Source of the DNA: Fibrobacter sp.
Lineage (GTDB): Bacteria; Fibrobacterota; Fibrobacteria; Fibrobacterales; Fibrobacteraceae
Reading direction: 5' to 3'
Length of the DNA: 32,728 bases
NCBI GenBank assembly: GCA_017503015.1
Contig: JAFVTX010000029.1
Location: 1-32,728 of the forward strand
Shown here piece by piece: positions 339 through 32,728 of the stretch. A model generated the notes under the pieces. The model was not told the origin of the DNA and did no database searches. It saw only the letters and a list, made by a program, of their open reading frames with translations. Within the stretch, counting starts at the first letter, position 1. Each line of letters begins with the position of its first letter. A program made the translations under genes and the position numbers.

Positions 339-366
339 TTAGGGGTTAGGTTATAGGTATTAGGGG
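339..366 (+). repeat. Degenerate heptamer tandem repeat, TTAGGGG type
   Basis: Four period-7 units follow the stop codon by 3 nt: TTAGGGG, TTAGGTT, ATAGGTA, TTAGGGG. The same period and a similar core recur at 30552-30579. Confidence 0.75.
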
Positions 367-15998: not shown

Positions 15999-17027
15999 CT
16001 AACGAGACACCTGTTCCCACAAATTGCGAGACGTCACGCCGTAATGCTCCTTGAGGGACTTGTCCACATCACCGTGATAAAAATCCCGGATGCAAGTTTT
16101 GAACTTGAGAAACTGCTCTCTGGATGCCAACCCAGACTCAGCACGGAACATCTTCTTGACCATTTCCAAAGAATACCAATAAAGTTTCAACGCTTCGTCG
16201 GTCCTGGACTCCCCTACGAAAGGCGCTACAAGGGCATCCAAGGAAGGTGGCGAACCCGAAGGGCGATTCTTGTCGTTTCGGCTTCCGTCTACAAGTTGGG
16301 CAATGCCCTCATTCAACCACAGAGGGACTTTGGCCCTAGTCATGGCACGGACAAAGGCATGAGTCAGTTCATGAAAAATCACGGGGCGGTAAAGTTCGCG
16401 GTACTGCATCATTCCAACGGGAATACGGAGCTTACCGTCGAAAATGGCCCCAACCCACTCTGGCCTTGGCCCTATTCCCTGATATTCAGAAGATTGGTAC
16501 AAGACTACATGCATCTTGTTTTCTGGGCGGAAATCAAAAAGATGACACAGGGAGTCGTAGGCCACCTCTAAAACGGACAAAGCCTCCAACACATCATTCC
16601 TATTCGGGCGACCCTCGAATTCTACACGAAAATGCATGGATCGGGCAATGCCCAAATCTTCCATCTCCTTGAGAAGTGATTTCGATTTCTTTTCTAGGAA
16701 TTCCAGGTCTTCGTTTCTGTAATTCAAGGTTCCAATATAAGCTATGCAATCCTCGTAGCGTTCCTGCTCATAGAGAGTGCCCGCTAAGTGAAGTTGCAAG
16801 TTTTTATCGTCAGGAGTTTTTTCTAAAAGGGCGCGGACAGCCTTTTCTGAACATTTCCAGTCCGCCGCCTCCTGACACTCATTAAATTCATCCACAAGGC
16901 GATTCGCCTCTTCTATGGCACGATTCTTTTTTGACACATCCATGTAGGTGTGTACACCATAACCCAGGGCAACAATAGCGGCGACGATAGCGAAAAGCGT
17001 TCGAAAAGGAGGTGGACTTTGAGTCAT
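15999..17027 (-). CDS. Membrane-anchored gluzincin metallopeptidase with TPR-like region
   Basis: A 342-residue protein from the ATG at 17027; a TTG two codons earlier is less likely. An N-terminal uncleaved anchor (about residues 9-27) is followed by a TPR-like helical region (about 35-125: CSEKAVRALLEKTPDDKNLQLHLA and LYEQERYEDCIAYI). The peptidase-MA-like domain (about 130-342) has the zinc motif FHELTHAF and the downstream glutamate in WLNEGIAQLV, the gluzincin pattern HExxH plus E. All three metal ligands and the catalytic Glu are present. It probably acts in the periplasm, held to the inner membrane. The substrate is unknown. No Shine-Dalgarno site is visible. It is divergent from ychF with an 84-bp gap and is followed by a strong terminator. 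Confidence 0.85.
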   Translation of the reverse strand: MTQSPPPFRTLFAIVAAIVALGYGVHTYMDVSKKNRAIEEANRLVDEFNECQEAADWKCSEKAVRALLEKTPDDKNLQLHLAGTLYEQERYEDCIAYIGTLNYRNEDLEFLEKKSKSLLKEMEDLGIARSMHFRVEFEGRPNRNDVLEALSVLEVAYDSLCHLFDFRPENKMHVVLYQSSEYQGIGPRPEWVGAIFDGKLRIPVGMMQYRELYRPVIFHELTHAFVRAMTRAKVPLWLNEGIAQLVDGSRNDKNRPSGSPPSLDALVAPFVGESRTDEALKLYWYSLEMVKKMFRAESGLASREQFLKFKTCIRDFYHGDVDKSLKEHYGVTSRNLWEQVSR

Positions 17028-17111: not shown

Positions 17112-18209
17112 ATGGGTTTTAAGTGCGGTATCGTAGGCCTCCCCAACGTAGGCAAGTCCACCATCTTTAACGCCATCACCAACGCCGGCGCCGAAGCCGC
17201 GAACTACCCCTTCTGCACCATCGAGCCGAACGTGGGCATGGTGAGTGTGCCGGACAGCCGCCTCGACGAACTGGTCAAGGTTTACAACCCGAAATCCATT
17301 GTCCCCGCCGTTACAGAATTCGTGGACATCGCTGGTCTCGTGAAAGGGGCTGCCCAAGGAGAAGGCCTAGGCAACCAGTTCCTCACCCACATCCGCGAAT
17401 GCGAAGCTATTATGGAAGTCATCCGCTGCTTTGACGATGAAAACATCGTGCACGTGAGCGGTTCCGTGGACCCGGTCCGGGATGTAGAAATCATCGAAAC
17501 CGAACTGATTTTGAAAGACCTGGATTCCGTGGAAAAGCGTCTCGCTACCGAAGCCAAGGGAGCCCGCACAGGCAACGCCGAAGCCAAGGCCCGTCTCGCC
17601 GCCTGCGAAAAACTCCGGGACACCTTCCAAGAAGGCAAGGCCGCCCGCACCGTGATGCACGAAAGCGAAGAGATGGAAGGCATCGTGAAGGACCTCGGGC
17701 TCCTTACCGCAAAGCCGCTGTTCTACTGCGCGAACGTGAAGGAAGACGACATCCTCACGGGCAACGCCTATGTGGACCAGCTGAAGGATTACGCCGCCAA
17801 AAACGGCCACGAAGTCATCGTGATTAGCGGGAAGATCGAAGAAGAACTTTCCGCCATGGAACCTGCGGACAAGGCGGAGTTCTTAAAGGAACTGGGCATG
17901 AAGGAATCGGGCCTGGACGCCGTGGTGCGCAAGGGCTACGAAATCCTTGGGCTCCGCACCTTCTTTACTGCCGGCGAAAAGGAATGCCGCGCCTGGACGT
18001 TCCATGCAGGCTACAAGGCCCCGCAGTGCGCAGGAGTGATCCACACCGACTTTGAGCGCGGGTTCATCCGTGCAGAAACCCTCAGCTACGCCGACTTCTT
18101 GAAGCACGGCAGCTGGAACGCCGCCAAGGAAGCGGGCCTCGTCCGCACCGAAGGTAAGGACTACCTGGTACAGGATGGCGACATCATGTACTTCTTGTTC
18201 AATGTGTAG
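17112..18209 (+). CDS. ychF: YchF/OLA1-family redox-regulated ribosome-binding ATPase
   Basis: A 365-residue protein, the usual length. The P-loop GLPNVGKST near residues 8-16 is followed by switch and G3-type sequence FVDIAGLVKGA and by the unusual NVKE in place of NKxD, the mark of the YchF group that prefers ATP. A coiled-coil insertion (about 125-200) and a C-terminal TGS domain (about 280-362, ending GDIMYFLFNV) complete the set. YchF binds ribosomes and takes part in translation and stress responses. AGGAG at 17101-17105 sets the start. Codon use is notably GC-rich and regular, as in highly expressed genes. A heptamer repeat array and a bidirectional terminator follow. Confidence 0.97.
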   Translation: MGFKCGIVGLPNVGKSTIFNAITNAGAEAANYPFCTIEPNVGMVSVPDSRLDELVKVYNPKSIVPAVTEFVDIAGLVKGAAQGEGLGNQFLTHIRECEAIMEVIRCFDDENIVHVSGSVDPVRDVEIIETELILKDLDSVEKRLATEAKGARTGNAEAKARLAACEKLRDTFQEGKAARTVMHESEEMEGIVKDLGLLTAKPLFYCANVKEDDILTGNAYVDQLKDYAAKNGHEVIVISGKIEEELSAMEPADKAEFLKELGMKESGLDAVVRKGYEILGLRTFFTAGEKECRAWTFHAGYKAPQCAGVIHTDFERGFIRAETLSYADFLKHGSWNAAKEAGLVRTEGKDYLVQDGDIMYFLFNV

Positions 18210-18222
18210 CACCTGCGGTGCA

Positions 18223-18299
18223 GTTATGAGTTGTGAGTTATGAGTTATGAGTTGTGAGTTGTGAGTTGTGTGTTATGAGTTGTGAGTTGTGAGTTGTGA
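18223..18299 (+). repeat. Heptamer tandem repeat array, GTTRTGA type
   Basis: Eleven consecutive 7-bp units of GTTGTGA or GTTATGA (one ends in GT instead of GA). It begins 13 nt after the ychF stop and ends before the terminator. Because 7 is not a multiple of 3, all reading frames give the same 7-residue repeat, which is not a real protein. Confidence 0.9.
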
Positions 18300-18322
18300 G
18301 GTTCGAGCAAGCACTACACATT

Positions 18323-18352
18323 AAAAAACTCGCCTTGTGGCGAGTTTTTTTT
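18323..18352. terminator. Bidirectional terminator between ychF and the membrane protein gene
   Basis: AAAAAACTCGCC pairs with GGCGAGTTTTTT around TTGT, with A and T runs on both sides. It serves both convergent transcripts and touches the stop codon of the leftward gene at 18351. Confidence 0.9.
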
Positions 18353-29053: not shown

Positions 29054-30579
<1,526 letters not shown>

Positions 30580-32155: not shown

Positions 32156-32710
32156 CTACTTGCCGTTGTAGCGTTCCATGCACTTTTCCATACCGAGCTT
32201 GAAATAGCATTCCACCAGGGCGGGAACTTTCGCGATGGCCTCTTCGAAAACGGGCCGGTCCTCGGGCGAAAACTTCGCCAGCACCCAGTCACTCAGGTCG
32301 AACTTGGGCGGACACTTGCCCACGCCAAAACGGATTCGCGGGAACTTATCGCCCACATGCTCGATGATGTTCCGAAGCCCGTTTTGCCCACCGTGACTGC
32401 CGTCCTTGCGGCAACGGATGCGTCCCACGTCCAGATTGACATCGTCGCTGAATACCAGCAGATGGTCCACCTTCACCTTGTACCAGGTCATCAGGGCCTG
32501 CACCGCCTCGCCAGACAAGTTCATGTAGGTCTGGGGCTTCACCAGCAGGCAATCCTCCCCCGCGATGTTCACCTTCATGGTAAGCGACTTGTGCTCGCAT
32601 TTCCAATCCTTGTTCGGGTCGGCCAATTTCTCGACGGCCATAAAGCCCGCGTTGTGATGGGTGTTGCTATACTGGGTTCCAGGGTTTCCGAGTCCGACGA
32701 TGAGATACAT
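32156..32710 (-). CDS. pth: Peptidyl-tRNA hydrolase
   Basis: A 184-residue protein, normal length. It releases peptides from tRNA that drops off the ribosome. Active-site motifs are intact: GLGNPG (residues 6-11), NTHHNAGF with catalytic His19, YMNLSG and SDDVNLDVGRIR with the acidic residue that orients the His, then GSHGGQNGL. The family usually has NTRHN; here the residue before the catalytic His is also His. No Shine-Dalgarno site is visible; heptamer units sit 4 nt before the ATG. It leads the pth-DUF4416-asparaginase operon as far as the window shows. Confidence 0.97.
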   Translation of the reverse strand: MYLIVGLGNPGTQYSNTHHNAGFMAVEKLADPNKDWKCEHKSLTMKVNIAGEDCLLVKPQTYMNLSGEAVQALMTWYKVKVDHLLVFSDDVNLDVGRIRCRKDGSHGGQNGLRNIIEHVGDKFPRIRFGVGKCPPKFDLSDWVLAKFSPEDRPVFEEAIAKVPALVECYFKLGMEKCMERYNGK

Positions 32711-32714
32711 ACTA

Positions 32715-32728
32715 GTGGTGAGTGGTGA
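32715..32728 (+). repeat. Start of a heptamer repeat, GTGGTGA type, cut by the window edge
   Basis: Two exact units of GTGGTGA touch the window end directly upstream of pth. They resemble the GTTRTGA array at 18223-18299. How many units follow is not visible. Confidence 0.55.

What the first reader, a model, noticed from the sequence alone, without database searches (positions are those of the whole stretch)
18223..18299. Period-7 tandem repeats recur at four intergenic sites
Degenerate heptamers occur at 339-366 (TTAGGGG type, 4 units), 18223-18299 (GTTRTGA, 11 units), 30552-30579 (YTAGGGK, 3-4 units) and 32715 to the window end (GTGGTGA, at least 2). All are outside genes, three within a few bases of a stop or start codon. 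Different consensus but the same period and a shared T-R-R-G-like core suggest one generating process, such as slippage, or a family of expression or nucleoid-binding elements. The guaB copy covers the -35 position and the pth copy sits where a ribosome site should be.
Basis: seen in the sequence. Interest (0 to 1): 0.6.

Follow-up and report, generated by a model that had tools for sequence, protein, structure and literature searches.

The report
Outward-pointing 7-base repeats at gene edges
This Fibrobacter genome is dotted with short arrays of 7-base repeats between genes, whose cytosine-poor strand nearly always points away from the neighbouring gene, and the same layout recurs in very distant bacteria, hinting at one shared but still unknown way of making and spreading them.

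Summary
The window holds four intergenic period-7 arrays (339-366, 18222-18300, 30552-30576, 32714 to end), and they belong to a genome-wide population. An 823 kb sample holds 109 intergenic arrays (13 per 100 kb). Other periods that are not multiples of 3 or 7 are rare, and shuffled DNA gives about none. Many unit families share one make-up: on one strand C is only 4%. That C-poor strand runs 5'->3' away from the adjacent gene: 157 arrays against 21, or 107 against 4 within 15 nt in the enlarged set. The rule holds for convergent, divergent and tandem gene pairs. Where one region holds both orientations the order is +- in 79 regions and -+ in 1, across Fibrobacter, Bacteroidota, Cyanobacteria and others. 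The rule was already reported for other heptamers in Xanthomonas and Nostoc, so the kind is known. Apparently new here are the Fibrobacter case, many unit families obeying one rule, the unit changing between species at one conserved site (3' of ychF), and arrays in phase with the stop codon. My best mechanism, inferred, is 7-nt slippage plus break repair copied from other arrays, filtered by translation. No reverse transcriptase or Ku was found in this genome. A regulatory role remains unshown.

The parts
339..366 (+). Degenerate heptad array, TAGGGGT/TAGGTTA/TAGGTAT type, starting 3 nt after the stop codon of ORF 60-335, in sense orientation
   Evidence: sequence; the type occurs 215 times genome-wide
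17112..18209 (+). ychF (GTPase, 365 aa), the gene whose 3' edge carries the main array
   Evidence: Pfam YchF-GTPase_C 1.8e-38 and MMR_HSR1
18210..18220 (+). Mini hairpin CACC-TGC-GGTG between the ychF stop and the array (also in G016 and G022)
   Evidence: stem in the fold
18222..18300 (+). Main heptad array, 11 units AGTTRTG (TGAGTTA/TGAGTTG), sense to ychF, C-poor strand pointing away from the gene
18312..18322 (-). CACTACACATT, read as a remnant of an opposite-facing right arm that is longer in relatives (ATTACACATTTCACACTACACATT in G046)
   Evidence: the reading as a remnant is inference
18323..18350 (.). Intrinsic-terminator-like hairpin AAAAAACTCGCC-TTGT-GGCGAGTTTTTT, conserved in some relatives
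   Evidence: fold
30552..30576 (+). Heptad array CTAGGGT/TTAGGGG, 40 nt upstream of guaB (29054-30511, minus strand), antisense to guaB, C-poor strand pointing away from it
32714..32728 (+). Heptad array AGTGGTG directly upstream of the pth start codon (32156-32710, minus strand), antisense to pth, cut off by the contig end
   Evidence: the window is the whole contig C29

Best explanation
These are intergenic heptanucleotide arrays, a known kind of bacterial repeat, kept at gene edges by a mutational process with a filter. Shown: the arrays change by 7- and 14-nt steps, array regions are replaced much faster than other intergenic DNA, and the C-poor strand runs 5'->3' from the gene edge towards the middle of the intergenic region whatever the gene directions. 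Inferred: after a break or fork collapse in an intergenic region, the 3' end trimmed back to a gene edge pairs with an array elsewhere in the genome, often primed by a stop-codon trinucleotide (TAG, TGA or TAA lie inside the units), copies that array and sometimes the donor's core, and the ends are rejoined. Copying the C-poor strand leads into the donor's intergenic middle, while copying the other strand would lead into the donor's gene, so the orientation perpetuates itself. Translation adds a filter: in front of starts the G-less strand must be the mRNA (no spurious AUG/GUG or Shine-Dalgarno), and behind stops the C-poor strand supplies stop codons in all frames. In the window this would explain the sense arrays behind ORF 60-335 and ychF and the antisense arrays before guaB and pth.
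For: Lag-7/14/21 signal in intergenic DNA. Outward 157, inward 21 (p = 6e-27); 107 to 4 within 15 nt, including G022 stretches not used to find the rule, where it is 18 to 0. Convergent 35 of 39 and divergent 36 of 38 outward. Order +- 28 regions and -+ 1, +- 5 and -+ 0 in the new stretches, +- 46 and -+ 0 in distant phyla. Stop codon in phase with the array: lag-7 match 0.59-0.75 at positions -3 to -1, about 0.25 to 0.35 just upstream. TAG next to TAGGNNY arrays 9 of 11 against 33% genome-wide (p = 0.0014). Array regions 74% median identity against 95.5% for other intergenic regions at equal gene-edge identity; indels of 7 or 14 nt 10 against 1. Core replaced while both arms are kept (L128 18341-18498 against G022) and unit family replaced at one boundary (L042 against G016). 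Different units at the same ychF site across the genus. Shared cores at several loci, nearly all with arrays for the commonest ones.
Against: The copying step is not observed. Most ends of stretches shared between loci (66 of 96) do not fall in heptads. Orientation is lost more than 100 nt from genes in Fibrobacter (5 to 6), though 11 to 4 in distant phyla, so a filter acting at gene edges alone could do much of the work. The model does not explain why the period is 7 rather than 5, 8 or 10.
Confidence: 0.35

Rival explanations
1. Plain slippage plus selection: heptads arise and expand by replication slippage in either orientation, and only orientations harmless to translation survive. In front of starts the mRNA must lack G (no spurious starts or Shine-Dalgarno, unstructured leader); behind stops the C-poor strand gives stops in all frames.
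For: 0 of 18 genes with start-proximal arrays have a Shine-Dalgarno-like motif. The orientation bias fades with distance from genes in Fibrobacter. 7-nt indels between relatives. The same rule in many phyla.
Against: Random slippage should yield all heptamers, not a few C-poor families repeated at dozens of loci. No strong reason to forbid the other strand behind stops within 15 nt. Arrays begin at the stop codon and in phase with it. Core replacement at orthologous loci.
Confidence: 0.3
2. Remnants of small mobile elements (MITE- or REP-like) whose inverted ends are heptads: the element's middle is a palindromic core and its two ends carry the facing arrays.
For: A core AGATTAGTAATGAGTT..CTTATAGTCGCGCCTTTGGCGCCAAATTATA recurs at 9-16 loci in the sample, nearly all with arrays, with 86-96% identity. 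+- order.
Against: Most array regions have no such core: 20 of 78 share a repeated core. Arms are often of different families. No intact Y1 transposase found in the genome, one fragment with an internal stop. Arrays start at stop codons.
Confidence: 0.15
3. Functional elements: binding sites or RNA structures controlling termination, translation or mRNA stability.
For: Position at gene edges; some facing pairs of one family can form hairpins; modest RNA fold signal at the ychF site (z -2.3).
Against: Unit sequence differs between species at the same site, and several relatives lack an array there; arms often cannot pair; an ordinary terminator-like hairpin follows in the window.
Confidence: 0.12
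4. A dedicated enzyme adds heptads to 3' ends at breaks, telomerase-like, with the G/T-rich strand at the 3' end, and the ends are then joined.
For: Strand polarity, +- order, telomere-like composition (A 24, C 4, G 37, T 35%), unit families replaced at the same boundary. A bacterial tandem-repeat-making reverse transcriptase, DRT10, is described (PMC12632851, 9-nt repeats).
Against: No PF00078 reverse transcriptase in this genome or in G016 and G022, and no Ku in the 31 genomes of the genus searched.
Confidence: 0.08

Closest known systems
GGGNATC / GGGGAYT heptamer repeats of Xanthomonas and Nostoc (Rehm et al. 2015, PMC4692102)
   Same: Period 7, intergenic, genome-wide, copy number varies between relatives, and the same placing: antisense just upstream of ORFs, sense just downstream of stops, irrespective of ORF direction
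   Different: Many unit families in one genome; the main unit TGAGTTR has no G-tract for a G-quadruplex; unit family changes between species at one site; +- pairs of unlike arms; stop-codon phasing measured here
TAACTGA direct repeats of Beggiatoaceae, Cyanobacteria and Bacteroidetes (MacGregor 2015, PMC4679880)
   Same: Heptamer, mostly intergenic, often just upstream of starts, scattered over phyla; its complement TCAGTTA differs by one base from TGAGTTA
   Different: That study treats one exact unit and proposes translational regulation in Beggiatoaceae; here arrays lie behind stops about as often as before starts and the units are diverse
STRR heptanucleotide repeats of Calothrix and other cyanobacteria (Calothrix case cited in PMC4692102; otherwise own knowledge)
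   Same: Several tandem heptanucleotides in one genome
   Different: Not compared in sequence here beyond the shared (GAGTTRT)n unit found in Nostoc and Calothrix
DRT10 / telomerase
   Same: Tandem repeats added to a 3' end would give the strand polarity seen
   Different: No reverse transcriptase found in this genome; DRT10 repeats are 9 nt and were not described as genomic arrays in the passages read

Membership tests
Intergenic heptameric SSRs (Rehm type) | Tandem units of 7 nt, over-represented in non-coding DNA | tested here: met
   109 of 126 arrays intergenic although intergenic DNA is 13% of the sample
Intergenic heptameric SSRs (Rehm type) | Antisense upstream of ORFs, sense downstream of stops | tested here: met
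   86 to 4 near starts, 61 to 2 within 15 nt of stops
Intergenic heptameric SSRs (Rehm type) | Copy number varies between relatives | tested here: met
   7/14-nt indels 10 against 1 in control regions
Intergenic heptameric SSRs (Rehm type) | G-tracts able to form a G-quadruplex (defines the GGGNATC subtype) | tested here: not met
   Main unit AGTTRTG has no GG; only TAGGGG-type units do, and those were not tested physically
TAACTGA repeats | Exact unit TAACTGA | tested here: not met
   Window units are TCATAAC/TCACAAC on that strand
TAACTGA repeats | Located just upstream of start codons | tested here: inconclusive
   True for the guaB and pth arrays, not for the other two
Telomerase/DRT-type repeat addition | A reverse transcriptase in the genome | tested here: not met
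   PF00078: 0 matches in G000, G016, G022; very divergent enzymes not excluded, and G016 and G022 are incomplete
REP/BIME with RAYT transposase | Palindromic unit and a Y1 transposase | tested here: not met
   Units are not palindromic; only a Y1_Tnp fragment with an internal stop in G000
MITE | Defined ends and target-site duplication | not tested
   Empty/filled ortholog pairs not analysed for duplications

The most novel reading that the evidence does not exclude
A widespread bacterial process, not yet described, builds or copies C-poor heptads onto 3' DNA ends at intergenic breaks, so that gene edges in many phyla carry telomere-like arrays all pointing into the intergenic space and acting as handles for exchanging intergenic cassettes.
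Probability: 0.12. Interest if true: 0.9.

Novelty: new variant of a known kind. Interest (0 to 1): 0.55.

Why it matters
Heptamer arrays have long been noted in bacteria without an accepted origin. The rule that one C-poor strand nearly always points from the gene edge into the intergenic space, in convergent, divergent and tandem settings and across phyla, sharply limits the possible mechanisms. It also turns the question into a testable one: induce a break next to an array and read the repair products. It matters for annotation too: the arrays abut gene ends, take the place of ribosome-binding sites and probably break assemblies.

Tried and rejected
Reverse transcriptase (PF00078), Ku (PF02735) and Y1 transposase (PF01797) were sought as the machine: the first two are absent from this genome, the third is one fragment with an internal stop. 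Hairpin formation as the general function: about half of the facing arms are of unlike families (similarity 9.07 observed against 7.11 +/- 0.68 for shuffled pairings). A known structured RNA: Rfam finds only a tRNA in the window. Rho-site logic was considered and rejected because the strand switches within one short intergenic region according to the nearest gene edge. The array supplying the stop codon from within was considered: periodicity begins at the stop rather than well upstream of it, so this is not the general case. RecA's preference for GT-rich DNA was sought as a physical reason for the polarity; no usable paper was found.

Full report
Where it is. The window is the whole contig C29 of a 2.96 Mb, 74-contig genome. 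It is a Fibrobacter: congener G022 has a contig of 54,329 bases, the length of contig OMSO01000008.1 of 'uncultured Fibrobacter sp. RUG831', which holds the same repeat. The flanking genes are ychF, guaB, an asparaginase and pth.

Check of the observation. All four arrays exist as described. In the window alone only 18222-18300 is far beyond chance. Genome-wide, GTTRTGAGTTRTGA is found 74 times against 0 for the reversed control and YTAGGRKYTAGGRK 215 times against 26. In a 433 kb sample, 58 period-7 arrays reach score 10, while other periods that are not multiples of 3 or 7 give at most 6; at score 12 there are 36, and one order-3 Markov shuffle gives none. In 823 kb, 109 of 126 arrays are intergenic although intergenic DNA is only 13% of the sample. 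Intergenic DNA shows lag-7, -14 and -21 peaks in this genome and in G022, but no lag-7 peak in relative G003.

Unit families. AGTTRTG, AGGGGYT/AGGATYT, AATGTGG, AGTTCGG/ATTTCGG, AGTTACT, AGGTTGT and others occur, often mixed in one region. On the G-rich strand the composition is A 24, C 4, G 37, T 35% against C 21% in intergenic DNA. Orientation was assigned by G over C, so some asymmetry is built in, but a C content of 4% is not.

Geometry. The C-poor strand runs 5'->3' from the nearest gene edge into the intergenic region: 157 outward, 21 inward (p = 6e-27); near starts 86 to 4, within 15 nt of stops 61 to 2. With further G022 stretches not used to find the rule, the counts within 15 nt are 107 to 4 (those stretches alone 18 to 0), fading to 5 to 6 beyond 100 nt. 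It holds in convergent (35 of 39) and divergent (36 of 38) pairs, so it does not follow the direction of transcription. Regions with both orientations are ordered +- in 28 cases and -+ in one, and +- in 5 more and -+ in none in the new stretches. All four window arrays obey.

Other phyla. (GAGTTRT)4 occurs in at least 115 stretches of the species-level genome collection: Bacteroidota, Cyanobacteria, Chloroflexi, Gammaproteobacteria, Fibrobacter and others. In those loci the order is +- in 46 regions and -+ in none; outward against inward within 60 nt is 40 to 4 in Cyanobacteria, 55 to 14 in Bacteroidota, 20 to 2 in others. Gene calls there are simple ORFs, so these numbers are rougher. The same placing was reported for GGGNATC-type heptamers in Xanthomonas and Nostoc (PMC4692102), so the rule itself is prior art for two genera.

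Contact with genes. Arrays that abut stops begin at the stop codon and in phase with it (lag-7 match 0.59-0.75 at the stop, 0.27-0.35 in the three bases before). The stop codon fits the unit: TAG next to TAGGNNY arrays in 9 of 11 (p = 0.0014), TAG overall 29 of 51 against 33% (p = 0.0008). Where an array lies within 18 nt upstream of a start, none of 18 genes has a Shine-Dalgarno-like motif, against 43% of genes and 14% by chance. Whether arrays replaced such motifs or settled at genes without them is not decided.

Evolution. Between this genome and G016/G022, with gene edges about 95.5% identical, array regions have a median identity of 74% against 95.5% for other intergenic regions, with ten 7- or 14-nt indels against one (20 array and 55 control pairs). 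Some pairs differ by in-place 7-nt steps; in others the arms stay and the core is replaced (L128 18341-18498), or the unit family changes at one boundary (L042 against G016). Behind ychF, relatives carry TGAGTTR, TAGGGGC, AATGTGG, TCAGGYT, CTAGTTA or GTTCGAG arrays, often as facing pairs, and several carry none. The window keeps CACTACACATT, which I read as the stub of the right arm seen in G046 and G012 (inference). Within the genus the GTTRTGA pattern is patchy: 74, 107 and 124 matches in three genomes, none in most.

Mechanism. Slippage accounts for the 7-nt steps. It does not give a handful of C-poor families repeated at dozens of loci, nor orientation, nor core replacement. A step in which 3' ends at gene edges copy other arrays would give all of these, and a translation filter would sharpen them; this is inference and I put it at 0.35. 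Plain slippage plus selection is close behind at 0.30. A dedicated heptad-adding enzyme has no candidate here: no reverse transcriptase, no Ku. Element-like cores with heptad ends exist at 9-16 loci of the sample but do not explain most arrays. Why the period is 7 remains open.

Verdict. A real, genome-wide feature of a known kind, with a sharper and wider description than I found in the papers read. Function is not shown.

Noticed in passing
L046:8120-8215; L056:1205-1310; L126:18600-18810; L128:18395-18450; L055:7951-8057: Dispersed element AGATTAGTAATGAGTT..CTTATAGTCGCGCCTTTGGCGCCAAATTATA with a GGCGCC palindrome and heptad arms, at 9-16 loci in 28% of the genome.
   Followed up: partly
L057:7637-7854; L122:8612-8823; L125:2572-2739: A second recurring intergenic palindrome, GTCATCCTCGCGCAGGCGAGGATCCGCTT..GAGGATGAC, often between facing arrays; related GTCATCCTGAGCG..GGATC sequences occur in other species of the genus.
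   Followed up: partly
window 18210-18220; L081 (G006) 3' of ychF; L059:16125-16138: A mini hairpin (CACCTGCGGTG, CGGCTTCGCCG, GCACCTGCGGTGC) sits between the stop codon and the first heptad at several loci.
   Followed up: no
window 32714-32728; G000:C25:20; G000:C60:21: Contigs end or begin inside or next to heptad arrays, so the arrays probably break the assembly and array numbers are lower bounds.
   Followed up: no
G000:C38:62808-62996: A Y1 transposase fragment with an internal stop codon; several congeners have copies without one.
   Followed up: no
window 16687-16730: A tandem duplication of about 22 bases, TTCGTTTCTAGGAATTCAAGGTC.
   Followed up: no
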